40,068 bases of DNA from Desulfuromusa sp. (lineage in GTDB: Bacteria > Desulfobacterota > Desulfuromonadia > Desulfuromonadales > Geopsychrobacteraceae), in the NCBI GenBank assembly GCA_027858895.1, contig JAQIBX010000034.1, positions 1 to 40,068 of the forward strand. The letters are read 5' to 3'. A program made the position numbers and the translations under genes. The notes under the pieces are model-generated. The model did no database searches. It had not been told where the DNA came from and was given only the letters and a program-made list of their open reading frames with translations. Positions 4,843 through 40,068 of this stretch are shown here, piece by piece (positions within the stretch are counted from its first letter, which is position 1; the number at the start of each line of letters is the position of its first letter).

Positions 4843-4851
4843 CACAAATTG

Positions 4852-5400: not shown

Positions 5401-5534
5401 AGGGCAACCTCCTTGCTTCAACAGGCTCCGGTATGGAGTCTGGATTAGTTTAACTATAACGCAGAATCATCCACGATGTATCTCTTTACCATGGAAAAAT
5501 CAAAATGGATGATCTTAAAAAACACAGTGGCTAA

Positions 5535-5644: not shown

Positions 5645-5651
5645 AACGCCA

Positions 5652-7106: not shown

Positions 7107-7197
7107 AAAGTTCTTTAATTCCAAAGGCAGGCGCTGCCTACCAAAAAACATTAATAATTTCAAAAACTATGATGCCAATACCCACCCAGGTGCGGGA

Positions 7198-26398: not shown

Positions 26399-28183
26399 TC
26401 ACGAGGGCCAACTGCTAAAGGGCTGTTTCTCGAATTTCATTTCACCATTATTTCCCTTGTAGATATTGATCCAGGCATTCCAGTTTTTGCTGTCCACGTC
26501 GGGATAGTCTAGCCGATAATGGCTGCAGCGGCTCTCTTTTCTCAGCAGCGATGCCTTGAGTTTCATCTCAGCATTAACAATCATATTGGCGGTTTCGTGG
26601 GCCAACCGTAGCTCGTGCAGGTCAGCTGCTCGAAGCATCGGCAGGTGATGATCGCGCAACTCCTCGATATACGCCAGGGCCGCCTTCAGCATGCTCTCTT
26701 TCTTGATATAGAGCACGAAGTTCGGGATCATGATTCCCTGCAGGGTCTGGGTGACCCAGGCGGGGCTGTAGCCTTTTTCCCGTTTTAACGGGGCTAGAAT
26801 CTCCTCCTCGATGGCCTTGATTTTGTTCTTGGAGATTGTGGGCAACTTCATCCCCTTACAATATTCTGCGGCCGCTTCGGAGACGATCGCGCCCTGCACG
26901 GCTGAGCCGGCGAGGGAAGAGCCGACCTGGGTGTAGATAGCGCCGGCCATATAAGACCCCAGAGCATCTCCGGCGGCGTAAAGCCCAGGAATATTGGATG
27001 CGCCCTGGTCGTTGATCGGCACCAGCCCTTCCGATTTATGGATCGACATTCCGGCAGAAGTGCCGCAGACCGAGCTGCCGCCCATCATGCCCGGAGGCGG
27101 GGCGCCGCCGGAATCGGGACCACCGCCGGGAGGTGGACCGCCCCCCTCTTTCCCCTTACCACCAGGAGGCGGACTGGGACGCCGGCCATTCTCGGCAAAT
27201 TCAGCCGGACGGACGGGGCCGCCTGTGACCTGCTTTCCGCCGCTCTGTCCGGGAGGGCCTCCGGCAAGGGGGCCACCGCCCATATAGGCCTGATAGCACT
27301 GTTCCACGCCGAGGTCATGGTGGACTTCAACCCCAGTCAGCCCCGGCTTGCGGTCAAACATTCCATGCCAACCGTCATAACAAGCCGCCGCGTTGGTTGG
27401 TTGCCCCGAGTGGCCGTCGTTCCATTCCTTACCGGTCACCTTGGCACCGATGCTATAGGCCATGACCGTGCCGTCGTGGGTGAGGTCGCAGATGGGAAAT
27501 CCATTTGGTTTGAAGCCGCCGGCACCGGAACACAAGACGACGCTCTTCGCCTTGAAGATATACACCTTGGCTTCATCGAAACTGAAACCGGCGGCACCGG
27601 CAATTTTACCATTTTCTTTGATCAGATGGGTGATCATGACCCGTTCGACAACTGGAATGTTGCGTTCTTCGAGCGGCTTGCTGAAGGAGTTGAAGTAGAG
27701 CGGCGAATCGAAGAAGCCCCACTCTTTCAGATCCTTGACCCGGGCCAGGGAGTGCTCGGCCATCTGCCGGGTAAAAACCGGATTGTTGGTGCCCATCGCC
27801 GAGCGGGAGACCGTGGCGACAAACTCATCCAGACTCAGCTTTTCTTTATCTGGGTCGTAAGCAAAGATCCCTTTGGCAAAAGGGGTCTGCCCCGAGGAAC
27901 CGAGGCGCCCCTTGGAGACCATCAGTACTTTGGCCCCAGCATCATGCCCCTTCACCGCGGCAAACAGTCCGGCGATGCCGCTGCCGATCACGAGGAGGTC
28001 GGTTTCCATCTCCTCGCGGGTCATGGTATCGATATCGATATCGATCTCAGGGATATTCCCCTTGAGCTCTGGGTCTCCGGCAAAAACTCCCATTGACGCC
28101 ATGGCCGCAAGACCAGCCGCGCTTCCGGCAATCGCCATGAAGTTGCGGCGGGAGACCTCTTTCTTACGTTTTAATTCTGTCAC
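26399..28183 (-). CDS. Tat-exported FAD-dependent oxidoreductase (fumarate reductase/AprA-like flavoprotein) with Gly/Pro-rich insert
   Basis: A 594-aa flavoprotein. A twin-arginine signal (SRRNFMAIAG, residues 11-20) is followed by the FAD dinucleotide motif VIGSGIAGLFAA (about 65-76) and the second FAD contact LYAAGDALGSYMAGA (about 401-415). The C-terminal segment (about 530-590, ESRCSHYRLDYPD ... NWNAWI) resembles the C-terminal region of adenylylsulfate-reductase-type and related flavoproteins. Residues 301-369 are a low-complexity Gly/Pro/Ser insert (GGGPPPGGGPDSGGAPPPG) between the substrate and second FAD regions. The start is GTG at 28183, directly after the cytochrome b stop (TAAGTG). 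With the ferredoxin and cytochrome b genes it should form a membrane-linked redox complex; the substrate is not evident. Confidence 0.82.
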   Translation of the reverse strand: MTELKRKKEVSRRNFMAIAGSAAGLAAMASMGVFAGDPELKGNIPEIDIDIDTMTREEMETDLLVIGSGIAGLFAAVKGHDAGAKVLMVSKGRLGSSGQTPFAKGIFAYDPDKEKLSLDEFVATVSRSAMGTNNPVFTRQMAEHSLARVKDLKEWGFFDSPLYFNSFSKPLEERNIPVVERVMITHLIKENGKIAGAAGFSFDEAKVYIFKAKSVVLCSGAGGFKPNGFPICDLTHDGTVMAYSIGAKVTGKEWNDGHSGQPTNAAACYDGWHGMFDRKPGLTGVEVHHDLGVEQCYQAYMGGGPLAGGPPGQSGGKQVTGGPVRPAEFAENGRRPSPPPGGKGKEGGGPPPGGGPDSGGAPPPGMMGGSSVCGTSAGMSIHKSEGLVPINDQGASNIPGLYAAGDALGSYMAGAIYTQVGSSLAGSAVQGAIVSEAAAEYCKGMKLPTISKNKIKAIEEEILAPLKREKGYSPAWVTQTLQGIMIPNFVLYIKKESMLKAALAYIEELRDHHLPMLRAADLHELRLAHETANMIVNAEMKLKASLLRKESRCSHYRLDYPDVDSKNWNAWINIYKGNNGEMKFEKQPFSSWPS

Positions 28184-28822
28184 TTAGTTTACCCCGACTT
28201 TCTCTGTTTTTGGTCTGTAGGCGCTCAGCTGCAGCAGGACTCCGCCTGCCGTCAGGACGGCGATAAAGACCGACATGGCCAGGTTTGCATGGCGGCCAAG
28301 ATCGATCATGTGCCAGGCACCACTGAACACAAAGAGAATGGAGAGAATGCCGTGCACCAGCCGCCAGGTCGTATATTTCATCGGCAACTGGTTACGCATA
28401 AAAGACATTATTCCGAGGGTCAGCATCAGGAACCAGGCGATGATACCCAGCACCACGCCCTGGCTGGTAAAGGTCGTAATGATGGTGATAAATGCTTCAT
28501 CGGGCGAAACGCCGGCCTCGAAAAATCTGGGGAAGACCTGCAGAAACGGATGAATAAGCAATATGGTGACCGCCGTATAGCCGATGACCTTATGCAGACT
28601 GATCAGCCTGCTCATCTTCACTTCTTGAACCGCGGATCCATTCGATCGAGAGAGAAAGAACTGCCCGACCACCAGGAAGAAGGCCAAAATGGTCAGTAGC
28701 GAGATTGTCTCCTTCAACCAGGAACGCTCCGGAAAGCTGCTCAGAGCCAAGATGAGGAGAGGTATGCCGACAAAAATCAGCACCAATTGCACAAAAAAAC
28801 TACTTTTCAGATACGTGTTCAT
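28184..28822 (-). CDS. Ferric-reductase-like transmembrane cytochrome b
   Basis: A 212-aa integral membrane protein with about six helices (near 9-28, 40-58, 76-95, 121-141, 155-171 and 181-199). Histidines lie where a ferric-reductase-like b-type cytochrome would bind heme: His77 (ISLHKVIGY), His91 (LLIHPFLQ), His157 (RLVHGIL) and His171/His178 (GAWHMIDLGRH). The start at 28822 (MNTYLKSSFF) is chosen because it follows the ferredoxin stop by two bases and GGGG lies upstream. It probably links the flavoprotein or ferredoxin to the quinone pool. Confidence 0.82.
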   Translation of the reverse strand: MNTYLKSSFFVQLVLIFVGIPLLILALSSFPERSWLKETISLLTILAFFLVVGQFFLSRSNGSAVQEVKMSRLISLHKVIGYTAVTILLIHPFLQVFPRFFEAGVSPDEAFITIITTFTSQGVVLGIIAWFLMLTLGIMSFMRNQLPMKYTTWRLVHGILSILFVFSGAWHMIDLGRHANLAMSVFIAVLTAGGVLLQLSAYRPKTEKVGVN

Positions 28823-28824
28823 TT

Positions 28825-29040
28825 TTATCCCCAGGAAACGACAACCGGAATCGTCTTGTCCGGCGTAATGGTGATGGCATCCACCGGGCAATACATTCTG
28901 CACAGGTGACAGATTTGACAATCGGCCGGATACTTGATAAATGCTTTGTTGGTTTTTTCGTCCGGGCGGATAACGTCCGTGGGGCAGGTCTTGATGCAGA
29001 CCCCACAGCCGATGCAGCCTTTAATCTGATTAATGGCCAT
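28825..29040 (-). CDS. 2x[4Fe-4S] ferredoxin, AprB-like small subunit
   Basis: A 71-aa protein with two cluster motifs: Cys9-x2-Cys12-x2-Cys15-x3-Cys19-Pro and Cys41-x2-Cys44-x2-Cys47-x3-Cys51-Pro. The segment TDVIRPDEKTNKAFIKYP between them is like ferredoxin partners of AprA-type flavoproteins. No signal peptide is present, although its presumed flavoprotein partner carries a Tat signal; it may ride along folded or act on the cytoplasmic side. ATG at 29040 has AGGAA upstream and overlaps the receiver gene's end by 11 nt. Confidence 0.88.
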   Translation of the reverse strand: MAINQIKGCIGCGVCIKTCPTDVIRPDEKTNKAFIKYPADCQICHLCRMYCPVDAITITPDKTIPVVVSWG

Positions 29041-29485
29041 GTTCAAATTCCTGTAACTGGTGGAGAAGTTTGTGTTTGTTGCTGTTTAAATTGCTGGAGG
29101 CTGGCGGAATCTTTTGCAGAACATACTGGAGTGAGTTCACGAGCCCCTCTAACTCATACGGTTTGCTGAGCACTAGATCAAAATCTGGACCTGCAAGATA
29201 TGGTGAGGCAGTCACAGCTATGACTGGGATTTCCTTACTGAAAGCATGGACGAACTGGGCCAGAATGTTGCCGTTTATTCCCGGTCTGCAAATATTAGTC
29301 AACACCAGGTCAAATAGATCTTTTTGAAATATTCCGATTGCTTCATAACCATCATGGACAGCAACCACTGAAAACCCGCTTTCGTTTAACCAGGTTTCCA
29401 TCAGTTGCAGATGGGCATTGTTGTCATCGACAACGAGAATTTTATAGTTCGTGCTCCCTCTCTTTTCATTTGAGTACACTGGCAT
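29030..29485 (-). CDS. Receiver-only protein with Asn at the phospho-acceptor position
   Basis: A 151-aa stand-alone receiver domain (about residues 14-130) without an output domain. The acidic pair Asp20-Asp21 (VVDDNN), Thr92 (AVTAS) and Lys108 (SKPY) are present. The residue normally phosphorylated is Asn64: the text reads DLVLTNICRPG where active receivers have a D before the I/xMPG segment, and the codon is AAT. It is therefore unlikely to be phosphorylated and may bind a partner constitutively. It is the first gene of the ferredoxin-cytochrome b-flavoprotein operon. ATG at 29485 with AAAGGG eight bases upstream is preferred over a GTG at 29494. Confidence 0.85.
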   Translation of the reverse strand: MPVYSNEKRGSTNYKILVVDDNNAHLQLMETWLNESGFSVVAVHDGYEAIGIFQKDLFDLVLTNICRPGINGNILAQFVHAFSKEIPVIAVTASPYLAGPDFDLVLSKPYELEGLVNSLQYVLQKIPPASSNLNSNKHKLLHQLQEFEHGH

Positions 29486-29501
29486 TGTTTTCACCCTTTC
29501 T

Positions 29502-29530
29502 TAAAAATCAGGGATGTCTGAGCATCCCTG
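29502..29530 (-). terminator. Terminator or attenuator between the small secreted protein and the redox operon
   Basis: CAGGGATG (29509-29516) and CATCCCTG (29523-29530) pair perfectly around a 6-nt loop, and on the minus strand the stem is followed by ATTTTTAA. It lies 17 nt after the small protein's stop and directly before the receiver gene. No separate promoter for the redox operon is evident, so partial read-through would control it. Confidence 0.7.
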
Positions 29531-29547
29531 TTAATGTATCGAGATCC

Positions 29548-29814
29548 CTAACGAGGGGCACCACCTTCGGGCATGTTGTCAGGAACTGCAGCCAGTTGAC
29601 CATCTTTCTCCTGACAAGTAGCTTCGACAGATTCCCCTTGACGCCCTTTGAAAGTGACAGCATCACCAACACTCTTGCCTTCGCAGGCCGCGATCGCTTC
29701 AGGTGGCGGACCTTGTGGACGGCCTTTTCCACCGCCGAAGGCATAAACGGTAACTGGGGACAGAATGGCGAGGGTTAAAAGTAAGATGGTGGTATTCTGT
29801 AGTTGTTTTTTCAT
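29548..29814 (-). CDS. Small secreted protein, Gly/Pro-rich with two cysteines
   Basis: An 88-aa protein with a Sec signal peptide (KKQLQNTTILLLTLAIL, cleavage likely after VTVYA). The mature part begins FGGGKGRPQGPPPEAIAACEGK and contains two cysteines (ACEGK, ATCQEK) that could form a disulphide, ending PDNMPEGGAPR. I recognise the look of small periplasmic proteins found near efflux and stress systems but cannot name a family. ATG at 29814 with AAGGAG upstream is chosen over a TTG at 29820. It is driven by one of four matching promoters. Confidence 0.8.
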   Translation of the reverse strand: MKKQLQNTTILLLTLAILSPVTVYAFGGGKGRPQGPPPEAIAACEGKSVGDAVTFKGRQGESVEATCQEKDGQLAAVPDNMPEGGAPR

Positions 29815-29857
29815 CTTCAAACTCCTTTGTGTTTTTGAGCGTTATTGATTTGTCGTA

Positions 29858-29892
29858 ACAATAGCGCCGGAATAAGGAGCGAATAGGGAAGA
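29858..29892 (-). promoter_or_regulatory. Tandem 11-bp activator box plus -10 (copy 1, small secreted protein)
   Basis: Given on the plus strand: AATAAGGAGCG (29871-29881) and AATAGGGAAGA (29882-29892), two 11-bp units in tandem. Seven bases away is ACAATA (29858-29863), which on the minus strand is the -10 TATTGT. The transcript would start near 29851, 37 nt before the ATG at 29814. The 11-bp tandem layout without a good -35 is typical of OmpR/PhoB-family activators. Confidence 0.7.
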
Positions 29893-29997
29893 AATGTGAA
29901 AGTATCGAGTCTGGAAAAATTGCACCATAAAAATGACGCTAAAGTAAAAAAACCGAATTCGAACCCAAAGCAGAGTCCAAGCACAGTGGTTTAATAG

Positions 29998-31215
29998 TCA
30001 TTCATAGCGCAAGGCATCGATAGGATTGAGATTGGCGGCCTTACGCGCCGGATAAAAGCCAAAGAATACCCCAACGGCTCCGGTAAAAAGAACGGTTGTC
30101 AGAACAACTGTGGGGTTTACCACCGCGCTAACCCCCAGCAATTTGCCAACTCCCCAGGCTGCACTTAAGCCGGAAAAAATACCGATCAATCCTCCAAGCA
30201 GGCTGAGGATAGCGGCTTCGATAAGAAATTGCGCTAAAACATCAAGAGGGCGGGCGCCAACGGCGAGACGAAGGCCAATCTCGCGGGTGCGTTCGGTGAC
30301 GGAGACCAGCATGATATTCATGATGCCGATCCCTCCCACAAGCAGGGAAACCCCAGCGATGGAACTGAGCAGCAGGGTCAGGGTGCCGGTGACCCGGGTG
30401 GCGATTTCGACAATCTCGGTCTGATCGCGGATGATGAAATCATCCTCAGCAGCGGTGGCGAGCCGGTGCTCAGAACGCAGCAGGGTTGTCAGCTCCTCTT
30501 TGGCTGATTCCATCGCGTCGGAGCTGATGGCGCTTGCCGATATATCGTGAATTGTCTTGCCGTTACTCAGGCGATACAGCACAGTGTTGTCGGGAGCGAA
30601 GATGATATCGTCCTGATCGTTTCCCATGGACGATTGTCCCTTTTCGGCCATCACGCCGATCACTTTAAAGGGCACATTGCGGATGCGCAGACGCGCCCCG
30701 ACGGGGTCCTGGTCCGGGAAGAGTTCGTCGGCAACCGTCTTACCGAGCACCGCGACCTTGGCCCGCGTTTTACTATCCCGAGCAGTAAAGAAGGACCCTC
30801 TTTCCATCTCATAATTGCGGATCGACAGGTAGCTGGGGGCAACACCGGTGATCGTCGTGCTCCAGTTGTTGCTTCCGGCGATCACCTGTCCAGTGGCGCG
30901 AACCTCGGCGGAGACCCAGCGCAACTGCGTCGCATATTTCTCCAACCGGGCGACATCATCCATTGTCAGGCTCGGCCGCGACCCGGCGCCGCCACTCACA
31001 CCACCTGAGTCCACGCTACCCGGCCTGACCATCAGCAGGTTGGTTCCCAAGGAGGCGACTTCCCCTTCGATATCTGCCTGAGATCCCTCCCCCAGGGCGA
31101 CCATGGTGATCACCGAGGCGACGCCGATGATAATGCCGAGCATGGTCAGCAGGCTGCGCATCTTGTTACGGGCGATGCTCTTCAGGGCGACCAGGATCAA
31201 CTTATGCCAGCGCAT
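29998..31215 (-). CDS. MacB-type ABC transporter permease
   Basis: A 405-aa FtsX/MacB-type permease. One N-terminal helix (about 20-40), a large periplasmic domain (MacB_PCD, about 42-250) and three C-terminal helices (about 285-395) give the family layout, with the motif VSVTERTREIGLRLAVGA. In E. coli MacB the permease is fused to its ATPase; here they are separate genes overlapping by 14 nt. With MacA and TolC homologues upstream it forms a tripartite efflux pump for an unknown substrate. Confidence 0.92.
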   Translation of the reverse strand: MRWHKLILVALKSIARNKMRSLLTMLGIIIGVASVITMVALGEGSQADIEGEVASLGTNLLMVRPGSVDSGGVSGGAGSRPSLTMDDVARLEKYATQLRWVSAEVRATGQVIAGSNNWSTTITGVAPSYLSIRNYEMERGSFFTARDSKTRAKVAVLGKTVADELFPDQDPVGARLRIRNVPFKVIGVMAEKGQSSMGNDQDDIIFAPDNTVLYRLSNGKTIHDISASAISSDAMESAKEELTTLLRSEHRLATAAEDDFIIRDQTEIVEIATRVTGTLTLLLSSIAGVSLLVGGIGIMNIMLVSVTERTREIGLRLAVGARPLDVLAQFLIEAAILSLLGGLIGIFSGLSAAWGVGKLLGVSAVVNPTVVLTTVLFTGAVGVFFGFYPARKAANLNPIDALRYE

Positions 31216-31957
31216 CAGACATCTCCCCGGACAGCGTTACCAGGTCGGCCTGCGCATTGCGTGGCTGAGCGTTTATTTCATCGCGCAACAGCATCCCGTC
31301 ACGCAGTTCGATCAGACGCTTGGCATATTTGGCTACCTCTACTTCATGGGTTACTACCACTAGAGTTAAGCCTTCACTGTTCAACTCTTGAAACAAGGCC
31401 ATAACCTCCAGGGTCGTGCGACTGTCGAGATTACCCGTCGGTTCATCGGCAAGGATAATCGGCGGGTCAGTGACCAGCGCACGGGCAATAGCGACGCGCT
31501 GTTGCTGCCCGCCGGAGAGCTGGTTCGGCTCATGGTCGAGGCGATCGCCCAGACCGACACGCTGCAACGCTTCGATGGAGCGTGCTTGAGGATCGGCGAC
31601 CGCACGGTGACGATCGTAGAGCAGCGGCAATTCGACATTTTCCAGCGCCGTGGTGCGTGGCAGCAGGTTGAAGCCCTGAAAAACAAAACCGATCTTAGTA
31701 TTGCGCAGGTCAGCTAGCTGCTTCCGATTCAGGGTCTCAACCGATATGCCATCGAAGCGATAGCTGCCGCTGGTCGGGGTGTCGAGACAACCGAGGATAT
31801 TCATCATCGTCGATTTGCCGCTGCCCGAGCTGCCCATGATGGCGACAAACTCGCCCCGGCCAATCTCCAGCGAGAGGTCATCCAGTGCCCTGACCTCAAC
31901 CTCCCCCAAGGAAAAAACCTTGCAAATATGACTGAGACTGATCTGTGCTGTGCTCAT
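31202..31957 (-). CDS. MacB-type ABC transporter ATPase
   Basis: A 251-aa ATP-binding subunit of the MacB/LolD class. Walker A is GSSGSGKST, the Q-loop is [10 protein letters not shown], the signature is [14 protein letters not shown], and Walker B is [12 protein letters not shown] followed by [13 protein letters not shown]. Start ATG overlaps the macA stop by four bases. The C-terminal ~35 residues after LIELRDG are a variable tail. Confidence 0.93.
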
Positions 31958-33189
31958 GGACGCGCCCCTCCCCCGGATCCTTGCCCCGGGCCATCTCCTG
32001 GCCCGCCTCCGCCCCCCGATGGTCCTCCCTGGCCCTGGTTCATAAAATCGAACAGAGAGAAACCCTCTTCTTCAGCATCTTCCCCCGCCTGTTTCATGCC
32101 GATGGCAACCTGTATCCCGGCAGTCAGTTCGCCCTCGGCGATCTCGGTCAACAGTCCGTCGCTCTCTCCCACCGTGATCTGGATCGGCTGCAAGTGGCCA
32201 TCGGCCTGCCGGCTGAAAACCTGACTGCCGTCGTTACTATCGCGATTCGAATCGAGTGTGAAATTGAGCGCGGCGACCGGAACCAGCAGGGCGTTTTCAG
32301 ACTGGTGGACAACAAAGTCGACGGTTGCCGTCATACCCGGCATCAGCTGCCCTGATTCGTTATTCGCGTCGACGATCACCGTGTAGGTCACGACGTTGTC
32401 CACTGTTTCCGGTTGCAACCTGATTTGGCGCACGCTGCCGGTAAAGTCCTGGTCAAAATAGCTTTGCACCGTAAATCGTACCGATTGCCCCTGGCGAATC
32501 TGACCGATGTCGGTTTCGTCGACCTGGGTCTCGATCTGCATGCGCGACAAATCCTCGGCGATCAAAAACAGGGTCGGGGTACTTAGACTGGCCGCAACCG
32601 TTTGCCCGGCATCGACGCTGCGGTCGATAACTGTGCCGTCGATAGGCGAACGAATCACTGTATGCTCCAGGTTTATCTGGGCTTGCTCCAGGCTGGCTGC
32701 GGCTGATTGCAGGGAGGCTTTTGTCGTATCGACTGCCGTTCTGATGGGGAGAAATTCCTGCTCTGAGATGTAGCCCTTTTCTTGCAGCGGAGCGTTCCGA
32801 CGGAACTCGTCCTCTGCTTGTTTTAATTCTGCCTGAGCTTTAAGTACATCTGCTTTGGCTTTATTGACCGAGGCGTTGAACGATGACTGATCCAGTAAAG
32901 CCAGCACCTGATCTTTTTTGACCTGGTCATTATAATCGACCAGCAGTTGCTCAATTGTCCCCGAAGCCTGAGTGCCTATTTCCACCGTTTCCACGGCAGC
33001 CAGGGTACCAGTGCTGGTTACGAGGACCTCAAGCTTTCCCCGGCTTACCTGTGCGAACTTGAATGATGGTTTTATCCTTGATGACTCCTGGTGCGTCCAG
33101 GCCCACCAGGCAAGAATCGTCAGGGATAAAACCCCGATTAGCACGATAGCTGATTTGATAATTCTTGAGGTTTTTCGTTTCGCAATCAT
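31954..33189 (-). CDS. MacA-like periplasmic adaptor (membrane fusion protein)
   Basis: A 411-aa adaptor subunit. One N-terminal membrane anchor (about residues 11-28, IKSAIVLIGVLSLTILAWW) is followed by a lipoyl/biotinyl half (GTLAAVETVEIGTQASGTI ... VLALLD), a helical hairpin (about 95-165), the second lipoyl half (VIRSPIDGTVIDRSVDAGQTV) and beta-barrel domains. The tail is very Gly-rich (GGPSGGGGGPGDG) and has no counterpart in E. coli MacA. The start at 33189 follows the tolC stop by one base with GGAG upstream. It should connect the MacB pump to the TolC channel. Confidence 0.92.
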   Translation of the reverse strand: MIAKRKTSRIIKSAIVLIGVLSLTILAWWAWTHQESSRIKPSFKFAQVSRGKLEVLVTSTGTLAAVETVEIGTQASGTIEQLLVDYNDQVKKDQVLALLDQSSFNASVNKAKADVLKAQAELKQAEDEFRRNAPLQEKGYISEQEFLPIRTAVDTTKASLQSAAASLEQAQINLEHTVIRSPIDGTVIDRSVDAGQTVAASLSTPTLFLIAEDLSRMQIETQVDETDIGQIRQGQSVRFTVQSYFDQDFTGSVRQIRLQPETVDNVVTYTVIVDANNESGQLMPGMTATVDFVVHQSENALLVPVAALNFTLDSNRDSNDGSQVFSRQADGHLQPIQITVGESDGLLTEIAEGELTAGIQVAIGMKQAGEDAEEEGFSLFDFMNQGQGGPSGGGGGPGDGPGQGSGGGARP

Positions 33190-33190
33190 T

Positions 33191-34612
33191 CTAACTTTTC
33201 TCCAATTCCAGAGCAGCGAACAGCGACTCCAAGTTCCCCAGATAGTAGGAAACCGCAATTCCCTGGGTCACCAAATCGTATCCGGCCTGTATCTGATCAA
33301 ACGCTGCTGACACGTACTGAGTTCGTGACTGCGTAAGTTCCACCAGGGTCGAGGCCCCCACCCGGTAGCGCTCTTCGTAGGACTGAAGAGATTGTCGGGC
33401 AGCGGTCAGCTTGCTTTCGACCACCTCGACCTGTTTCTGGGTTGTTCGATATTCCTGGATGGCCTGTGATATTTCGAGGCCGAGCTGCAACTGTGTTTGC
33501 TTGAGGGTTAATTGTTCATTACGCTGCACAATTTTGGCCTGCGCAATATTGTTGCGGGTCAGGTAACGATCGAACAGAGGGAGAGAAAAAGAGACACCGA
33601 CGGTGGCGTTGAGGTTGTCTTCCATAAACTGGTCTGAAAAATAGTCCCCATCACCGAGACTGCTGTAACCGGAAGCCAGGCTGGCAAAAAGATCCACTTT
33701 AGGTAAGAGACCGGACTGGCTTTGGCGTATCTGTTGCCCAGCCGCTTCAACCTGCCGCTGCTGAGCTTTGACATCAGAGCGGTTCGCCAGCGCAAGAAGA
33801 GACAGTTGGTCGAGTTCTTCATCCGCTAACGGCAGGGACAGCTTCTCGAGATCTGGTGTGGTGACCTGGTAACGGACCGTTGGGGCCAACCCCATGGTTT
33901 GCATAAGGAGCAATTTGCTGACGTTGAGGGTCCGCTGTGCATCCAGCAGATCCAGCTCTGCCTGCTTGGTTTCCGCCTGTTGCTGATACAGATCGCTAAT
34001 CGCAAGTCGGCCCGCCTGATAGAAGGCCTCGATGCTCTCCAAAAGCTTGCGGTTCTCTTTCAGGTTTTCCTCTTCGACTTGGATCAATGCCCGATCCGTG
34101 AGCACCTGAATAAAATTGGAGATCGTCGCGAAAACCAGGGTCTGTTCTGCACGGGAAAGGGTTTCCTGCACGGCCCCCAATTCAAGCTCGGCACTTTTGA
34201 TCGCGGCGATGTCGGCAAATCCGTTGAACAGGTTAATCGATGAGGACAGCTCGGTACTGATTGACGTAAAACTTCGACTTTCTGTCTGACTGTTGGTTTG
34301 GTCGGACGCCTGGTCGAAGCGCTTCGATCCGGTGGCTGCTATGGCAAGATCCGGGTAGAGATCCGTCTGTTGCTGAGAAAGAGAAATATCTGCACTCTCC
34401 ACCGCATTCACTTGCTGAGCTAAGTCTGGACTCTTCTTCAATGCGATGCGCACAGCCTGTTCAAGAGAAAGAACCTGCTCAGCATGAATCTCGCTGTGTC
34501 CTTGGCTCGGAAGTGCCAAAATGATTAATGTTAAAAGCGCTGCAGGCAAAGTTCGAAGACACTTTGGCAAAGACCTGTATTTGTTATGCATGAGTGCAGG
34601 CAAAGGGACCAT
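33191..34612 (-). CDS. TolC-family outer membrane efflux protein
   Basis: A TolC-family channel (473 aa from the chosen ATG). A signal peptide (LRTLPAALLTLIILALPSQGHS) precedes two OEP repeats: LSLEQAVRIALKKSPDLAQQVN starts the first, and the second begins near RSDVKAQQRQVEAA. The start is uncertain: ATG at 34612 abuts GAAAGG, a TTG at 34603 has better spacing, and ATG at 34591 is also possible. Starts further upstream would lie before the predicted transcript start at about 34634. It is the first gene of the tolC-macA-macB(ATPase)-macB(permease) operon. Confidence 0.88.
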   Translation of the reverse strand: MVPLPALMHNKYRSLPKCLRTLPAALLTLIILALPSQGHSEIHAEQVLSLEQAVRIALKKSPDLAQQVNAVESADISLSQQQTDLYPDLAIAATGSKRFDQASDQTNSQTESRSFTSISTELSSSINLFNGFADIAAIKSAELELGAVQETLSRAEQTLVFATISNFIQVLTDRALIQVEEENLKENRKLLESIEAFYQAGRLAISDLYQQQAETKQAELDLLDAQRTLNVSKLLLMQTMGLAPTVRYQVTTPDLEKLSLPLADEELDQLSLLALANRSDVKAQQRQVEAAGQQIRQSQSGLLPKVDLFASLASGYSSLGDGDYFSDQFMEDNLNATVGVSFSLPLFDRYLTRNNIAQAKIVQRNEQLTLKQTQLQLGLEISQAIQEYRTTQKQVEVVESKLTAARQSLQSYEERYRVGASTLVELTQSRTQYVSAAFDQIQAGYDLVTQGIAVSYYLGNLESLFAALELEKS

Positions 34613-34640
34613 CCTTTCGGTTAACTGTTGAGAAGGAAAA

Positions 34641-34675
34641 AGGATAGCGGCTGAATAAGGAGCAAATAGGGAAGA
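34641..34675 (-). promoter_or_regulatory. Tandem 11-bp activator box plus -10 (copy 2, tolC-macAB)
   Basis: On the plus strand AATAAGGAGCA (34654-34664) and AATAGGGAAGA (34665-34675), with AGGATA at 34641-34646 (minus-strand -10 TATCCT) seven bases away. The similarity to copy 1 extends over about 41 bp (34644-34684 against 29861-29901), including ATAGCG and ATGTGAAA at the ends. The predicted transcript start is near 34634. Confidence 0.72.
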
Positions 34676-34693
34676 AATGTGAAAAGACCATGC

Positions 34694-34773
34694 TGACGAA
34701 GAAACTTTCGTCAAAACGTATAAAACCTGAATCCGCTCACCAGAAATAAATTCCAGGGTTACGGATTCAGGTT
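34694..34773 (-). terminator. Two inverted repeats after the EF-hand gene
   Basis: TGACGAA (34694-34700) pairs with TTCGTCA (34707-34713), and AACCTGAATCCG (34724-34735) pairs perfectly with CGGATTCAGGTT (34762-34773). Both lie between the EF-hand stop and the tolC promoter. Neither has a strong U tract, so end-of-transcript function for the EF-hand gene is only a suggestion; the longer stem could also be an operator-like site. Confidence 0.4.
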
Positions 34774-34833
34774 GAGGAAGATCGCCTGACAGTTGAATTC
34801 GTCAGGTTTGAATGTGAGAAAAGACCTTTTATT

Positions 34834-35295
34834 TTAAGCGGTCATTGATAATGAAGCATATTCTTCGCTATCTGAGCTTCCTGTTAACAATTCGATCAGT
34901 TGACTGATGGTGTCTTCACCACTATTTGACTCATAGGCCGAGGCTACTTCTGATGGTGGCGGAGGTGGCCTCATGATGGACTCGCCATCTTCACTGTTGA
35001 CCATTCCAGTAGGGTTAAACCCTTGACTGGCCATCAAGCCCTGCAATTCCTCGTTACTTACAATCCCGTCCTCATTAACATCTAAGAGGTCAAAGACCTC
35101 TTCAATATCACTAGAGGTGCCGGTAGCTCCCTGGACCCCTGTCGCTGAGGTTTTAAGCTCGGCCGAGGAAACCGATCCGCCACTGCCTGAATCTTCCACT
35201 TCAAAAGCATTCTTGTCCACTGGTGGCGGTTGTCGTTGCATGGCACGACTCGCCATCATCGACATGCTGCTGTTCGTACCTACACTGTTGATCAT
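34834..35295 (-). CDS. EF-hand calcium-binding protein
   Basis: A 153-aa acidic protein. One canonical EF-hand loop, DVNEDGIVSNEE (about residues 72-83), has all ligand positions. A second, degenerate loop, DSGSGGSVSSAE (about 35-46), lacks acidic side chains at positions 3 and 5. A RPPPPPSEV stretch lies near residue 110. There is no signal peptide, so it is cytoplasmic or exported by an unrecognised route. Two adjacent ATGs follow AGGAGG; the second (35295) has the better spacing. It sits between the RstA-like regulator and the efflux operon, with a separate regulatory-looking repeat upstream. Confidence 0.82.
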   Translation of the reverse strand: MINSVGTNSSMSMMASRAMQRQPPPVDKNAFEVEDSGSGGSVSSAELKTSATGVQGATGTSSDIEEVFDLLDVNEDGIVSNEELQGLMASQGFNPTGMVNSEDGESIMRPPPPPSEVASAYESNSGEDTISQLIELLTGSSDSEEYASLSMTA

Positions 35296-35396
35296 CATGA
35301 CCTCCTAACAATAGATTTTTAGCTGATTTTTCTAAAGAAACGATCTTCCTGTGCTCCTCCTATCGACCATCTTTCAGCAGTTATTTATGATAACTG

Positions 35397-35423
35397 TGTC
35401 ACCAACGTGTAACAGTTTGTAAC
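35397..35423 (-). promoter_or_regulatory. Triple TGT(A/C)AC repeat upstream of the EF-hand gene
   Basis: On the plus strand TGTCAC (35397-35402), TGTAAC (35408-35413) and TGTAAC (35418-35423) are spaced 11 and 10 bp apart, reading GTTACA on the minus strand. E. coli RstA boxes contain a GTTACA core, and the regulator encoded next door is RstA-like. The site lies about 100 nt before the EF-hand ATG. Confidence 0.45.
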
Positions 35424-35445
35424 TATGCAGCTGGAACTTTGTTGC

Positions 35446-36135
35446 TTAATCAGTTGCGGCAACAAACTGATAGCCAGCCCCGCGAACGGTTTTCAGGTAA
35501 CGGGGCGTTATCGGATCGTCACCAATTTTTTGCCGGATGCGGGAAATATAGATATCAATACCTCGGTCGTAGCCGTTGTAGGGGGAGTTGTAAAGATCCC
35601 GGTGAATATCACTGCGACTGACGACACAACCGGCTTTTTTCACCAGAGACCAGAATAGGTTGAACTCGACGGTGGAGAGCTGGGCCGCCTGATCAGCAAC
35701 AAATACATCTCGCTTGTTGGCATCTATGGTTAATCTGCCAAAGGTCTGAACTGCTGGTGGTTCAGAGGAAGCAAAACGGCGTAACAGGGCTTTTATTTGA
35801 GCGGTAATAAGCTGTAACCCTGAATCACACGGCAAAGAAGAATCGACCCCCATGCTCAAGGCAAGAGTGTGCAAGTTTTCGTCGGCATCACCGAAAAGCA
35901 ACATCAGCAGCCCCTGATAGCTGGTGCGAATTTCACGACAGGCTGTTAACCCTGCTACCACCGGACCGGGACTGTCGAGGAGTATAAGCTGCGGTTGCTC
36001 AGACACAATAAATGTTTGAGCCTGCTCCCAACGACCAACCGGACAGGTTCGAATATTATCCTGCTCCAATAGTTGTTTTATATCAGTATTGATTTCTGCT
36101 CTTTTAGAGATCAAAAGAACTGTCGTTTGATTCAT
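35446..36135 (-). CDS. RstA-like OmpR-family response regulator with degraded receiver
   Basis: A 229-aa protein with an N-terminal receiver (about residues 1-120) and a C-terminal winged helix (about 130-227; STVEFNLFWSLV, GIDIYISRIRQKIG, VRGAGYQFV). The phospho-acceptor Asp is present in LILLDSPGP, but the usual acidic pair is replaced by SKRAEI and the conserved Lys-Pro by LPCDSG, so phosphorylation by the normal chemistry is doubtful. The receiver text (ACREIRTSYQGLLML, LALSMGVD) resembles RstA. No kinase is paired on its strand; it diverges from a BaeSR-like operon. Its promoter carries the shared tandem box. Confidence 0.85.
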   Translation of the reverse strand: MNQTTVLLISKRAEINTDIKQLLEQDNIRTCPVGRWEQAQTFIVSEQPQLILLDSPGPVVAGLTACREIRTSYQGLLMLLFGDADENLHTLALSMGVDSSLPCDSGLQLITAQIKALLRRFASSEPPAVQTFGRLTIDANKRDVFVADQAAQLSTVEFNLFWSLVKKAGCVVSRSDIHRDLYNSPYNGYDRGIDIYISRIRQKIGDDPITPRYLKTVRGAGYQFVAATD

Positions 36136-36199
36136 CTTGCCGCCTGTTGTTAAAGTTTTTAGATCTAACCTCGAAAAAAATATCTATTAAATCTCTGAC

Positions 36200-36234
36200 A
36201 GAATAAAATCAGAATGAGGAGCAAATAAGGAAGA
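36200..36234 (-). promoter_or_regulatory. Tandem 11-bp activator box plus -10 (copy 3, RstA-like regulator)
   Basis: On the plus strand AATGAGGAGCA (36213-36223) and AATAAGGAAGA (36224-36234), with AGAATA at 36200-36205 (minus-strand -10 TATTCT) again seven bases away. The transcript would start near 36193 and read into the gene beginning at 36135. Confidence 0.68.
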
Positions 36235-36313
36235 AAAGAGGATATTTTTAAAAAATGGAGGATTATTTTCTACCGAAACAGGCAAGGTGAGGGGAAAGTA
36301 TGAATTCTATTGG

Positions 36314-36348
36314 ATCTGCATATTTCTTCCACATTCGGCAGCTATCCT
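36314..36348 (+). promoter_or_regulatory. Tandem 11-bp activator box plus -10 (copy 4, baeSR)
   Basis: In the reading direction of the kinase: ATCTGCATATT (36314-36324) and TCTTCCACATT (36325-36335), the complement form of the other copies, then seven bases and TATCCT (36343-36348). The predicted start is near 36355, about 85 nt before the GTG at 36440. The first unit is the most diverged of all eight. Confidence 0.58.
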
Positions 36349-36439
36349 GACTTCAGTGCAACAGATGAAAAGAGAAAAGGTTGGCCATTTCCAGTCGGCT
36401 ATTGTTATTAAAGAGAATAAAACAGTACAGAGGTTTTCG

Positions 36440-37837
36440 GTGACTATACAGATTAAACACAAACTCTTCTTCACCCTGTTGCTGACCAGCATTGTGGTCT
36501 CATCCGGGATGTTTCTGTTCATGCAGTGGAGTTTCGACCGTGGTTTTCTCAACTACGTCAATAATCAGCAAATGCAGGAGCTGGATCAACTGTCTGAACG
36601 TCTCGTGGCAAACTATGCCAGAGAGGGGAGCTGGTATTTCTTAAAGGGGAACTCTCTCCTCTGGGAACAATTACTGCGTACTGCTGAAAAAGACACTGAA
36701 CAACCGGAATCAAGATCAGAACAGAGGGGCAGTCAACTATCCGGGCCTCCACCAGGAAGGGGCCCAAGGGTTGCCCTTTATGACGCGAATAAACAAGGCA
36801 TATTTGCCCCTCCGATAGAGCAGCAACTTCAGCTTAAGCCACTACGCTACCAGGAGAGCGTCGTCGGCTACTTGGCTATCGTCCCGCCGAAAGAACTTTC
36901 CGAGGCCGGAGATCTGCAGTTTGTAAAGCAGCAGACAGAAACCTTCGCCCTTGTCGCGCTGGCCATGGCCGTGCTTTCATTGCTGCTTTCATTCCCTTTA
37001 ACAATCCATCTGTTACGGCCGATCAAAGCGCTGGCCGGAGGAACCCGCAAACTGATTGCCGGTCACTTCAAAACCCGTATTCCAGTGACCACCAAGGATG
37101 AACTGGGGCAGCTCTCTACAGACTTCAACAGTTTGGCAATAACGCTGGAGAAGAACGAGCAAGCCCGACAGCAGTGGGTGGCAGATATCTCTCACGAACT
37201 GCGCACCCCACTGGCAGTATTACGTGGTGACATCGAAGCCTTGCAGGATGGCATCCGCCAGCCGGGACCAAAAACCTTCGAAGCTTTGCATTCGGAAGTC
37301 ATGCACCTGGGACGGCTGGTCAATGATCTCTATGAACTTTCTATGTCCGATATTGGAGCACTCACCTATAAAAAAGTTATCGTTGATCCAATCGGAATTT
37401 TAAATGGAAGCATCGAACAGTTTGAGCAACGTTTTGCCGAGAAGAAAATGCACCTCAGTGCTGAGCTACCAATAGATTCCTCTTTTCAGCTGCTCGCAGA
37501 TCCCGACAGACTGCAACAGCTGTTCACCAACCTGCTGGAAAACAGTCTGCGCTACACCGATACACCGGGGAAGCTGAATATCCACATGAAGACTGAGAAA
37601 AATGTACTCTTTATCTATTTTGAGGATTCAGCTCCAGGGGTAACAGCAGAGCAGTTGGAAAAACTTTTCGATCGTCTTTATCGGGTCGAAATATCTCGCA
37701 ATCGTGCCCGGGGCGGAGCAGGACTGGGGCTAGCGATCTGCAGAAATATCATTGAGGCGCATCAGGGAATAATCGAGGCTGAATCTTCAGTTCTTGGTGG
37801 CCTCAATATCACAATCAAGTTCCCATTGCAGGGCTGA
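36440..37837 (+). CDS. baeS: BaeS-like sensor histidine kinase
   Basis: A 465-aa membrane kinase. Transmembrane helices lie near 9-29 and 169-192, flanking a periplasmic sensor domain (FDRGFLNYVN ... SWYFLKGN ... GPPPGRGPRVALYD). A HAMP domain follows, then the H-box ISHELRTPLAVLRGD with His252, and an ATPase domain with LLENSLRY, DSAPGV and GGAGLGLAI. The sequence follows E. coli BaeS closely along its length. GTG at 36440 is chosen: AGAGG lies six bases upstream, the length matches BaeS, and it lies downstream of the predicted promoter; longer frames start before it. It is co-transcribed with the BaeR-like gene. Confidence 0.9.
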   Translation: MTIQIKHKLFFTLLLTSIVVSSGMFLFMQWSFDRGFLNYVNNQQMQELDQLSERLVANYAREGSWYFLKGNSLLWEQLLRTAEKDTEQPESRSEQRGSQLSGPPPGRGPRVALYDANKQGIFAPPIEQQLQLKPLRYQESVVGYLAIVPPKELSEAGDLQFVKQQTETFALVALAMAVLSLLLSFPLTIHLLRPIKALAGGTRKLIAGHFKTRIPVTTKDELGQLSTDFNSLAITLEKNEQARQQWVADISHELRTPLAVLRGDIEALQDGIRQPGPKTFEALHSEVMHLGRLVNDLYELSMSDIGALTYKKVIVDPIGILNGSIEQFEQRFAEKKMHLSAELPIDSSFQLLADPDRLQQLFTNLLENSLRYTDTPGKLNIHMKTEKNVLFIYFEDSAPGVTAEQLEKLFDRLYRVEISRNRARGGAGLGLAICRNIIEAHQGIIEAESSVLGGLNITIKFPLQG

Positions 37838-37847
37838 GGACATGCAC

Positions 37848-38522
37848 ATGAAAGAAAAAATTCTGATTGTCGAGGACGAAAAACGGCTGGCCGAACTGCA
37901 CCGCGACTACCTGCAACAATCGGGTTATACAACTGAATGGTTGGAGGACGGTCTGAAGGTGATCCCCTGGGTGAAAGAACATGCCCCGGTCCTGATCCTG
38001 CTCGATTTAATGCTCCCCGGAAAAGACGGACTGGAAATCTGCAAGGAGATCCGTAGCTTTTCCAATGTGCCGATCATTATGGTCACTGCCCGGGTCGAAG
38101 AGATCGATCGACTGCTCGGGTTGGAGTTGGGGGCGGACGACTATATCTGCAAACCGTTCAGCCCTCGCGAAGTGGTGGCGAGGGTCAAAACCGTTTTGCG
38201 GCGTAGCTCACCACAAACACAAGATGAATCACAACAGCTTTTGACCCTTGACGAGGATAGTTATCAAGCGATTTTGCAGGGGCTTAAACTCGACTTAACC
38301 GCAGTCGAATTTAAGCTGCTAAGCATTTTGGCTCAGAAACCGGGGCGGATTTATTCCCGTGATCAGTTAATGGATCGACTTTACAGTGATCAGCGGATTG
38401 TTTGTGATCGAACCATCGACAGCCATATAAAAAAACTACGCAAAAAGATCGCCATAGCTGCCCCGGAATTTGAGGTGATCCATTCCATTTACGGAGTTGG
38501 TTATAAATACGAAAGACTCTAA
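37848..38522 (+). CDS. baeR: BaeR-like response regulator
   Basis: A 224-aa OmpR-family regulator. The receiver is intact: Glu9-Asp10 (IVEDE), Asp53 (LLDLMLPG), Thr80 (MVTAR) and Lys102 (CKPFSPREVVARVKT). The winged helix at about 130-222 contains DRTIDSHIKKLRKKI and VYGVGYK-like IYGVGYKYE. The text EEIDRLLGLELGADDYICKP nearly matches E. coli BaeR. ATG at 37848 has GAGGA seven bases upstream; an ATG two codons earlier is too close. It is the best candidate activator for the four shared promoters, including its own. Confidence 0.92.
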   Translation: MKEKILIVEDEKRLAELHRDYLQQSGYTTEWLEDGLKVIPWVKEHAPVLILLDLMLPGKDGLEICKEIRSFSNVPIIMVTARVEEIDRLLGLELGADDYICKPFSPREVVARVKTVLRRSSPQTQDESQQLLTLDEDSYQAILQGLKLDLTAVEFKLLSILAQKPGRIYSRDQLMDRLYSDQRIVCDRTIDSHIKKLRKKIAIAAPEFEVIHSIYGVGYKYERL

Positions 38523-38721
38523 ACAGTAATATCAGCAAGGGGCAGGGGGCACAGTGAAACATATTATCGGTAATTCTCAAAACTTAGCATTTGTGATTGT
38601 TTTCAGCTTTGCCGACAAACACCTATGATCCGTTCATCAAATGTCCTGTCAAAATACGCTTTAATTATGTCCATAGGAGTTATAGTAAATGCGAGTGGAG
38701 GGTTTCACATCATTTGCCCAG

Positions 38722-38890
38722 CTAGGAGCCTGTCGGACTATCCATGAGCCGACTGCAAATCCGGTTGTTTGGCCCATATTTCGACTCCTTTTTGCCCCAT
38801 AGCTACGGCTATGAGCCTGCAAATGTGTCAAAATCTGTTCTCAAACCTCCGAATTTTCGCTTCGCCCCGCACAGCCCGACAGACTCCTAG
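38722..38890. mobile_element. MITE-like 169-bp element
   Basis: The ends are 15-bp inverted repeats with one mismatch: CTAGGAGCCTGTCGG (38722-38736) and CCGACAGACTCCTAG (38876-38890). Internal symmetry includes CATAGC-TACG-GCTATG near 38799-38814. There is no transposase frame. The right end provides the stop codon of the EAL gene. The copy number elsewhere cannot be judged here. Confidence 0.6.
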
Positions 38891-40068
38891 TTATTTTGGG
38901 ATCGATATAATTCGACAAGCTTATCTGCGGGGATCGCTGGGCTAAAAATAAATCCTTGGAATTGTTCACACTTCTGCTGCTGTAAAAATATTAATTCTTC
39001 TTTCTTTTCAATACCTTCAGCAACGGTCACCAGCTTGAGACTTTTAGCAAGAAAAATGATCGATGCAATAATAGCTTGGCTTTCTGCATGGGTGGTTATT
39101 TCCGAAATAAATGAACGATCGATTTTCAATTCATCAACTGGAAGCCGGCGTAGGTAGCTAAAGGAAGAGTAACCGGTGCCAAAGTCATCAATCGATAATT
39201 TTAATCCCCATGCTTTCAGACTATGCAGAAGACCAATTTTATGGTCGACGTCATCAATCAATAAACTTTCTGTCACTTCAATAGTCAGAAACTGTGTATT
39301 AATGCCACTGGCGAAAATAATCTTTTTGAACTTATGCAGAAACTGCGGGTCAGTCATCTGTGATACTGACAAGTTATAGGACAAGGTGATCGGGATTTTT
39401 TCAACCTGATGCCATTGTTTTAACTGTCGACAGGCCTCCGTTAAAATCCACTCACCAAGAGGAATCATCAAACCGGTCTCTTCGGCTAAAGGGATAAACT
39501 CTGCCGGCGAGATGGTGCCTTCCGGGGTAATCCAGCGGATCAAGGCTTCAACACCCAAAATTGCACCGGTCAACACATCGACTTTAGGTTGGTAATAGAG
39601 GGAAAACTGCTCTTCTTTAAGCGCCTGGCGAAGTTTGGTCTCAAGCCTAAAACGTTTCCCATACATTTCACTAATGGCTTTTGAAGAAAAGAGGAAACGA
39701 TCTCCCCCTTGCTTTTTAGCATAGTCTTTGGCACTGGAAGCTAGGCGTAATAAGTCCAGCGCATCATCACTTTCTACCGGGTAGGTTGACAGTCCGATAC
39801 TGGCCGTCAGAATAAGTTCTCTGTCCTCAACCTGCATTGGCGCTTTGACTTTCCGCAAAATTCTTGCGGCAACGATAGCAGCCCGTTCCGCCCCCTTGAT
39901 CCGAGAAAGAAGTAAAGAAAAAACCCCCCGATCTGAGTGAAACAATTTTAGTTCAATACTCTCATCGCCCGCCGTATGACCTAATAAGTCAGTCCCACGC
40001 ACAATCACCTCCAGGCGTTGTGCTACTTGACGCAATATTTCGTCACCGGCCTTGATGCCTATTGTATC
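38887..40068 (-). CDS. GGDEF-EAL protein with degenerate GGDEF (5' end outside the window)
   Basis: The C-terminal part of a cyclic-di-GMP signalling protein, open to the window edge. The visible GGDEF remnant begins AGDEILRQVAQRL, but the motif itself reads HSDRGVF in place of GGDEF, so cyclase activity is unlikely. The EAL domain (about the last 250 residues) keeps its catalytic set: EALIRW, NLSVSQ, EVTESLL, DDFGTGYSS, KIDRSFI and VAEGIE, so phosphodiesterase activity is likely. The stop codon TAG (38887-38889) lies within the terminal repeat of the adjacent MITE-like element, ending the protein RSQNN. Confidence 0.9.
   Translation of the reverse strand, partial: DTIGIKAGDEILRQVAQRLEVIVRGTDLLGHTAGDESIELKLFHSDRGVFSLLLSRIKGAERAAIVAARILRKVKAPMQVEDRELILTASIGLSTYPVESDDALDLLRLASSAKDYAKKQGGDRFLFSSKAISEMYGKRFRLETKLRQALKEEQFSLYYQPKVDVLTGAILGVEALIRWITPEGTISPAEFIPLAEETGLMIPLGEWILTEACRQLKQWHQVEKIPITLSYNLSVSQMTDPQFLHKFKKIIFASGINTQFLTIEVTESLLIDDVDHKIGLLHSLKAWGLKLSIDDFGTGYSSFSYLRRLPVDELKIDRSFISEITTHAESQAIIASIIFLAKSLKLVTVAEGIEKKEELIFLQQQKCEQFQGFIFSPAIPADKLVELYRSQNN

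What the first reader, a model, noticed from the sequence alone, without database searches (positions are those of the whole stretch)
29858..36348. Four promoters share one architecture and define a candidate envelope-stress regulon
At 29858-29892, 34641-34675, 36200-36234 and (opposite strand) 36314-36348 the sequence has two tandem 11-bp units related to AATAAGGAGCA/AATAGGGAAGA, exactly 7 bp, then a TATNNT hexamer. They sit before the small secreted protein, tolC-macA-macB, the RstA-like regulator and the baeSR-like operon. Tandem 11-bp sites beside the -10 are typical of OmpR-family activators, and the complement (TTTCTTCC..ATT) is reminiscent of the E. coli BaeR box. I infer that the BaeR-like protein activates all four, including itself. 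Linking a MacAB-TolC pump, a secreted small protein, a second degraded regulator and possibly a redox operon to a BaeSR-type system looks new.
Basis: partly seen in the sequence, partly recalled or inferred. Interest (0 to 1): 0.75.

Follow-up and report, generated by a model that had tools for sequence, protein, structure and literature searches.

The report
Conserved BaeR operators controlling envelope genes
Four promoters in this bacterium carry the same DNA landing site for a BaeR-type stress regulator; the site is found beside the same regulator in many related bacteria and in known E. coli target promoters, so this is a real but mostly known kind of envelope-stress circuit with some new gene content.

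Summary
The motif is not at random density: pattern and profile searches of the 2.78-Mb genome find these four sites and nothing else above noise. Unsupervised motif finding upstream of baeS in 25 loci outside the family rediscovers the motif, usually pointing away from baeS. That model scores the window sites 43, 38, 36 and 19 bits, and in E. coli stretches ranks first the two ChIP-confirmed BaeR promoters, mdtA and spy, each with 7 bp and TACACT. Motif presence follows the BaeR ortholog. The BaeR attribution is well supported, though no binding or transcript data exist. The novelty claim is only partly right: BaeSR control of MacAB-TolC is published for Acinetobacter, and Spy-like proteins are standard BaeR targets. 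Apparently new: the three-unit reading of the operator, its reach beyond Proteobacteria, and some targets (an orphan two-cysteine secreted protein with a flavoprotein/ferric-reductase-like operon; a degenerate RstA-like regulator with an EF-hand protein).

The parts
29858..29903 (-). BaeR-type operator 1: three 11-bp units (29871-29903), 7-bp spacer, TATTGT; drives smallSec and probably RR154-FRlike-Flavo
   Evidence: 35.9 bits, model trained outside the family; E 4.2e-9
34641..34686 (-). BaeR-type operator 2: three units, 7 bp, TATCCT; drives tolC-macA-macB(ABC)-macB(permease)
   Evidence: 43.2 bits; E 1.3e-9
36200..36245 (-). BaeR-type operator 3: three units, 7 bp, TATTCT; drives the RstA-like regulator and probably the EF-hand gene
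   Evidence: 37.8 bits; E 4.8e-7
36314..36348 (+). BaeR-type operator 4: two units, 7 bp, TATCCT; faces baeSR (autoregulation inferred)
   Evidence: 18.9 bits; E 1.2e-3, not in the profile's training set; leave-one-out 41.2 bits; found in 6 of 30 baeS upstream regions
29548..29814 (-). small secreted protein with two Cys invariant in its family; no Pfam or NCBIfam model
29030..29494 (-). RR154: stand-alone receiver domain, phospho-acceptor Asp replaced by Asn (Asp kept in the three relatives aligned)
28184..28921 (-). ferric-reductase-like membrane protein (PF01794)
26399..28183 (-). fumarate-reductase-like FAD protein; N-terminus looks like a twin-arginine signal (by eye)
33191..34591 (-). 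TolC-family outer membrane protein
31954..33189 (-). MacA-like adaptor
31202..31957 (-). MacB-like ABC ATPase (separate polypeptide)
29998..31215 (-). MacB-like permease (PF12704 + PF02687)
34834..35298 (-). EF-hand protein
35446..36135 (-). RstA-like OmpR-family regulator with degenerate receiver
36440..37837 (+). BaeS ortholog, sensor kinase
37842..38522 (+). BaeR ortholog, response regulator

Best explanation
The four sites are operators of the BaeR ortholog encoded at 37842-38522. BaeS senses envelope stress and phosphorylates BaeR. BaeR binds head-to-tail to three (sites 1-3) or two (site 4) 11-bp half-sites. With the -10 hexamer taken as -12 to -7, the last unit covers about -30 to -20 and the one before it about -41 to -31, so BaeR sits where the -35 element would be and recruits sigma-70 polymerase, as PhoB does (recalled analogy). 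It thereby switches on an exporter (TolC-MacA-MacB), a secreted two-Cys protein with a redox operon, the RstA-like and EF-hand genes, and its own baeSR operon. Shown: the motif, its geometry, its restriction to this locus, its conservation with BaeR, and its presence in E. coli BaeR promoters. Inferred: binding, activation, operon extents and the stimulus.
For: Unsupervised EM on 320-bp baeS upstream regions of 25 loci outside the family: log-likelihood 518 against 107-115 in three dinucleotide shuffles and 128-165 in three sets of random regions from the same loci. That model scores the window sites 43.2, 37.8, 35.9, 18.9 bits, and four held-out same-family loci 28.0-38.4 upstream of baeS; 0 of 954,286 reversed positions reach 16. 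Of 41 three-unit sites, 29 have TANNNT exactly 7 bp downstream; over spacings 0-19 the only others are 2 at 12 and 1 at 15 (the hexamer was not in the model that picked the sites). Own genome: four sites at E 1.3e-9 to 1.2e-3, next E 2.1 (three of the four were in its training set, and 150 of 1293 first-look candidates were scored); the pattern searches agree. Over 98 genomes, 31 of 32 with a BaeR ortholog and 7 of 66 without have the motif; by genus 24 of 24 against 3 of 22. E. coli: mdtA 26.4 and spy 19.2 bits are the top two of 97,566 positions, next 9.7; maximum 4.5 in a 50-kb control stretch (earlier model 25.5 and 19.5). Published ChIP-exo finds BaeR at mdtA and spy and not at acrD (PMC7657598, passages); acrD scores 9.6. 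BaeR and BaeS are the best hits of E. coli BaeR (57% identity, 269.8 bits, next 201.1) and BaeS (380.8, next 197.9). The recognition-helix segment DRTIDSHIKKLRKK aligns with DRTIDSHIKNLRRK of E. coli BaeR (helix assignment recalled).
Against: No binding, transcript or expression data. The profile R1 used for the 98-genome count was trained on sites from most of the BaeR-bearing genomes, so '31 of 32' is partly by construction; the low rate without BaeR and the E. coli result are not. Genomes are not independent. Site 4 is the weakest and lacks a third unit. The published E. coli consensus strings are not matched letter for letter. BaeR and BaeS score below NCBIfam's strict equivalog cut-offs. 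12 of 41 three-unit sites lack TANNNT at 7 bp. Two of 30 baeS upstream regions (L065, L087) lack a strong site pointing away. tnaA and intF, ChIP-exo targets in E. coli, lack the site. In A. baumannii, BaeR did not bind the macA promoter in vitro (PMC4498774).
Confidence: 0.88

Rival explanations
1. The RstA-like regulator (35446-36135), not BaeR, is the protein that binds these sites.
For: It is an OmpR-family protein encoded in the middle of the cluster, and one site lies before its own gene.
Against: In 24 of the 30 baeSR loci no RstA-like gene was found in the fetched stretch (several stretches are short contigs). Its recognition-helix segment (YDRGIDIYISRIRQKI) differs from BaeR's. The E. 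coli promoters with the motif are BaeR targets by ChIP-exo (PMC7657598).
Confidence: 0.06
2. The motif is a BaeR operator, but some of the fixed hexamers (site 4 above all) are not working promoters; BaeR represses, or acts from other start sites.
For: No transcript data. 12 of 41 three-unit sites lack a strict TANNNT at 7 bp.
Against: The 7-bp spacing stands out among spacings 0-19 (29 of 41 against at most 2) and is shared with E. coli mdtA and spy. Site 4 with its spacing and hexamer is found in 6 of 30 loci.
Confidence: 0.1
3. Chance resemblance or recent duplication of one promoter segment.
For: Sites 1 and 2 are nearly identical over about 30 bp.
Against: The same motif lies beside baeSR in 28 of 30 loci examined, and the reversed control is empty at 16 bits.
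Confidence: 0.01

Closest known systems
E. coli BaeSR regulon (mdtABCD-baeSR, spy, acrD)
   Same: Orthologous kinase and regulator; same three-unit geometry with 7 bp and a TACACT hexamer at mdtA and spy; efflux pump and secreted protein as targets; a site that can serve autoregulation.
   Different: In E. coli baeSR follows the pump genes; here it is divergent from the RstA-like gene. The pump is MacAB-like, not RND. The window regulon has no LTXXQ (Spy) gene; the genome's two LTXXQ genes lie on other contigs where no site was reported.
Acinetobacter baumannii BaeSR and MacAB-TolC
   Same: baeR deletion lowers macA, macB and tolC expression (PMC4498774, abstract and passages); a BaeS mutant raises macAB-tolC (PMC10469669, passages).
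   Different: In PMC4498774 direct binding at macA was tested and not seen; here a strong operator lies before tolC-macA-macB.
PhoB / OmpR tandem operators (recalled)
   Same: 11-bp direct repeats in place of the -35 element.
   Different: Sequence of the unit; three units with a fixed 7-bp gap to the -10.

Membership tests
BaeSR two-component system | Reciprocal best match of BaeR to E. coli BaeR | tested here: met
   E. coli BaeR finds the window BaeR first (57%, 269.8 bits; next 201.1). The window BaeR's best PDB and NCBIfam matches are BaeR; all E. coli regulators were not searched one by one.
BaeSR two-component system | Best match of BaeS | tested here: met
   E. coli BaeS finds the window BaeS first (380.8 bits; next 197.9); best NCBIfam model is BaeS.
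BaeSR two-component system | NCBIfam strict equivalog score (a naming threshold, not a functional definition) | tested here: not met
   BaeR 331 against 380; BaeS 481 against 603 and 472 against 500. Hence 'BaeSR ortholog', not a named equivalog.
BaeR operator | Same operator profile as BaeR promoters shown by ChIP (mdtA, spy) | tested here: met
   Model trained only on relatives outside the family ranks them first and second of 97,566 E. coli positions in seven stretches.
BaeR operator | Letter-for-letter published consensus (TTTTTCTCCATDATTGGC; TCTNCANAA) | tested here: not met
   The window units read TCTTCCCTATT / TGCTCCTTATT; consensus strings as quoted in PMC3799227 and PMC3915751.
BaeR operator | Direct binding of phosphorylated BaeR | not testable with these tools
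   Needs purified protein.
BaeSR two-component system | Response to known BaeS inducers (ethanol, tungstate, indole) | not testable with these tools
   Needs expression data.
MacAB-TolC | MacB periplasmic core and FtsX domains, HlyD-type adaptor, TolC-type channel | tested here: met
   PF12704, PF02687, PF16576, PF02321 over cut-off.
MacAB-TolC | NCBIfam MacA/MacB equivalog; MacB ATPase fused to permease | tested here: not met
   MacB 265.9 against 966, MacA 165 against 342; ATPase and permease are separate genes. Hence 'MacAB-like'.
Spy/CpxP (LTXXQ) | LTXXQ domain in the window's small secreted protein | tested here: not met
   No Pfam match for any of the 13 family members scanned.

The most novel reading that the evidence does not exclude
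BaeR has one ancestral operator, three head-to-tail 11-bp units locked 7 bp from the -10, kept from E. coli to Desulfobacterota and probably Nitrospirota and Planctomycetota. In the window's lineage its Spy slot has been taken over by an undescribed two-cysteine secreted protein family coupled to a flavoprotein/ferric-reductase-like pair, turning an envelope-stress regulon into one that also repairs or senses periplasmic redox damage.
Probability: 0.35. Interest if true: 0.65.

Novelty: new variant of a known kind. Interest (0 to 1): 0.5.

Why it matters
It gives a concrete, testable operator model for BaeR (three units, 7-bp lock) where the papers I saw quote a single box. It lets BaeR regulons be called by sequence in bacteria without genetics. 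It also points to a secreted protein family with no Pfam or NCBIfam model as a likely envelope-stress effector.

Tried and rejected
Rejected: chance (controls); RstA-like as the binder; the small secreted protein as a Spy homolog (no LTXXQ match); the claim that the MacAB link is new.

Mended on re-checking: the first motif run (27 loci) and its scores left out the window, L025 and L073 (and L037, whose contig begins inside baeS) but still held two same-family loci (L084, L086), and its control was a plain base shuffle with half the restarts. The run was repeated with all family loci left out (25 loci), dinucleotide shuffles, random regions and equal restarts; the motif and ranking stayed. In one search the spacing test for 8-10 bp ran past the stored sequence and so said nothing; redid it for 0-19 bp. 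These repairs did not change my odds.

Led nowhere or incomplete: a script ended in an error after printing its main table (redone). tnaA and intF, called BaeR targets in E. coli by ChIP-exo plus expression in PMC7657598, have no site (-9.1 upstream of tnaC and -5.9), and sspA, which that paper discusses as matching the consensus, scores 7.4 (a site in the same stretch 9.1). acrD fits 7 bp plus a TA-type hexamer in two registers; it scores 7.5 with the 33-column model, 14.0 with the 46-column model that includes spacer and hexamer, 9.6. Of the 24 GTDB pattern loci, 10 have a BaeR of at least 60% identity in the held stretch and 5 more have a strong site without one there; five (L155, L157, L160, L162, L165) have no hit of 20 bits or more with the 46-column model and four (L161, L171, L174, L175) are weak, 25-34 bits; these nine are probably chance. 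Paper searches for BaeR with direct repeats, BaeSR with Geobacter or LTXXQ, and BaeR in Desulfuromonas or Desulfovibrio listed nothing on point by title and abstract; that is not proof of absence.
Full report
THE OBSERVATION. The four stretches were read directly. In gene orientation each is 11 bp + 11 bp + 7 bp + TATNNT, as stated. Sites 1-3 lie on the minus strand before the small secreted protein, tolC-macA-macB and the RstA-like gene; site 4 lies on the plus strand before baeSR. From the hexamer to the likely start codons (29814, 34591, 36135, 36440; my choice from the sequence) there are about 43 to 91 bp.

IS IT MORE THAN CHANCE? The window is one whole contig (C51) of a 2.78-Mb draft genome (98.7% complete). 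A strict pattern hits three places, all in the window; a relaxed two-unit pattern with one mismatch allowed hits the four sites and two register shifts of them. The reversed-pattern controls are 0. A 46-column profile of 38 sites finds the four at E 1.3e-9, 4.2e-9, 4.8e-7 and 1.2e-3, then nothing better than E 2.1 (150 of 1293 first-look candidates scored). Sites 1-3 are in that profile, site 4 is not.

PHYLOGENETIC FOOTPRINT. The BaeR protein was searched in 98 related genomes. Thirty-two have an ortholog at 62% identity or more; apart from two fragments (G068, G072) the next matches are at 49% or less. I fetched the surroundings. A motif finder of my own (expectation-maximisation, no seed from the window) was run on 320 bp upstream of baeS in 25 loci, all outside the window's family. 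It returned TTTCCtCATT TCTTCCAcATT TgcTcCAtAtT, log-likelihood 518 against 107-115 for three dinucleotide-shuffled sets and 128-165 for three sets of random regions of the same loci. With that model the window sites score 43.2, 37.8, 35.9 and 18.9 bits; four held-out loci of the family score 28.0-38.4 upstream of baeS; reversed loci have 0 of 954,286 positions at 16 or more. (A first run had left two same-family loci in the training set; the result was the same.) In 28 of 30 baeS upstream regions a site of 25 bits or more points away from baeS; L065 and L087 are the exceptions (25 of the 30 are the training set). Of 41 three-unit sites, 29 have TANNNT exactly 7 bp downstream; at the other spacings from 0 to 19 there are 2 (at 12) and 1 (at 15). 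The hexamer was not part of the model that picked these sites. With YANNNT the count at 7 bp is 33.

SITE 4. The site facing baeS is a different, two-unit type. I picked five examples from the scans; a leave-one-out model gives these five 31.2-44.1 bits and one more locus, L025, 24.6, while the other 24 have 1.6 or less. Autoregulation from this site thus looks like a trait of one subgroup (window, L025, L029, L032, L065, L073). In the remaining loci only the divergent site is seen.

WHICH PROTEIN BINDS? Over the same 98 genomes the profile reports E <= 0.01 in 38: 31 of the 32 with BaeR, and 7 of 66 without (stricter filters that lose some weak matches; Fisher 1e-17). The one miss, G036, has a contig that starts inside baeS. 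Of the seven, G068 has a BaeR cut by the contig end, G072 one with a stop, G064 an internally deleted remnant, and G077 a baeS running to the contig end; G002, G054 and G095 are unexplained. By genus it is 24 of 24 against 3 of 22. Most BaeR-bearing genomes gave training sites to this profile, so the first number is partly by construction; the second is not. The RstA-like gene was found at 6 of the 30 BaeR loci, and its recognition-helix segment differs.

CROSS-PHYLUM TEST. The outside-family model was applied to E. coli K-12 stretches. Published ChIP-exo has BaeR peaks at spy and mdtA and none at acrD (PMC7657598, passages read). That paper's further targets tnaA and intF, and its suggested sspA, do not carry a comparable site (-9.1, -5.9, 7.4). 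E. coli BaeR and BaeS retrieve the window's proteins first by wide margins, and the recognition-helix segment is nearly the same as in E. coli BaeR. The published single box TTTTTCTCCATDATTGGC (quoted in PMC3799227 and PMC3915751, passages read) covers the end of the first unit, the middle unit and the start of the third at spy.

THE REGULON. In the window: TolC, MacA-like, separate MacB-like ATPase and permease; an EF-hand protein; an RstA-like regulator whose receiver lacks the acidic pair and the conserved Thr and Lys, as do its three closest relatives, with the Asp itself kept in three of the four; the small secreted protein; a stand-alone receiver; a ferric-reductase-like membrane protein (PF01794); and a fumarate-reductase-like flavoprotein. 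The order smallSec-receiver-FRlike-Flavo recurs in G001 and G040; in G062, G087 and G044 smallSec, FRlike and Flavo follow each other without the receiver between. In other genera I scanned 20 proteins encoded downstream of sites. Ten were picked because they were 163-197-aa secreted-looking proteins: all ten exceed the LTXXQ (Spy/CpxP) cut-off. Of ten others, 8 had a Pfam match (DUF3300 twice, Lcl_C twice, CotH, OmpA, SH3/DUF6515, LEA_2) and 2 had none. So the shared theme is envelope proteins and exporters, as in E. coli.

THE ORPHAN SECRETED PROTEIN. Thirteen members align with two invariant cysteines and a core near PPPEAIxACxGKxxGDxVxF. None matches Pfam or NCBIfam, and the profile has no PDB match. 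A profile finds 16 copies in 12 of 98 genomes. Two are cut by contig ends. Of the other 14, nine have a strong site within 300 bp upstream on the same strand, one has a weak site about 415 bp upstream, one follows an RstA-like gene that has a site, and three have none. In a pattern scan of GTDB genomes 24 loci were found; 10 have BaeR at 60% or more in the held stretch, including MAGs labelled Nitrospira and Planctomycetota, and 8 encode this protein. MAG labels may be wrong.

WHAT IS KNOWN. BaeSR control of MacAB-TolC is published for A. baumannii, without demonstrated binding at macA (PMC4498774, abstract and passages; PMC10469669, passages). Spy as BaeR target is standard (PMC7657598). I did not find a three-unit description of the operator in the passages read or in the listings of searches; most subscription papers are not in this library.

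VERDICT. Observation confirmed and sharpened. Binding, activation and stimulus remain inferred.

Noticed in passing
window 38720-38895: A 176-bp interspersed element: 7 copies or pieces in the own genome at 78-100% identity, this one included, about 200 bp beyond the baeR 3' end.
   Followed up: partly
window 29030-29494: Stand-alone receiver RR154 has Asn at the phospho-acceptor position; the three relatives aligned keep Asp.
   Followed up: partly
L179 (G064) 6889-7413: An intact three-unit site beside an internally deleted baeR remnant, which suggests recent loss of the regulator.
   Followed up: partly
L191, L194: DUF3300 proteins of about 480 aa directly downstream of strong BaeR-type sites: a candidate BaeR target of unknown function.
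   Followed up: no
G000:C53 and G000:C175: The own genome's two LTXXQ (Spy-like) genes, one divergent from another OmpR-family regulator (36% identical to E. coli BaeR), lie on contigs with no reported BaeR-type site.
   Followed up: partly
window 26399-38522: Proline/glycine-rich stretches (PPPGGG-like) recur in the flavoprotein, MacA, BaeS sensor region, EF-hand and small secreted proteins (by eye).
   Followed up: no
L164 (Desulfopila aestuarii) 2640-7498: RstA-like, EF-hand, smallSec, FRlike and flavoprotein genes with two sites in a more distant bacterium, without baeSR in the held 8 kb.
   Followed up: no
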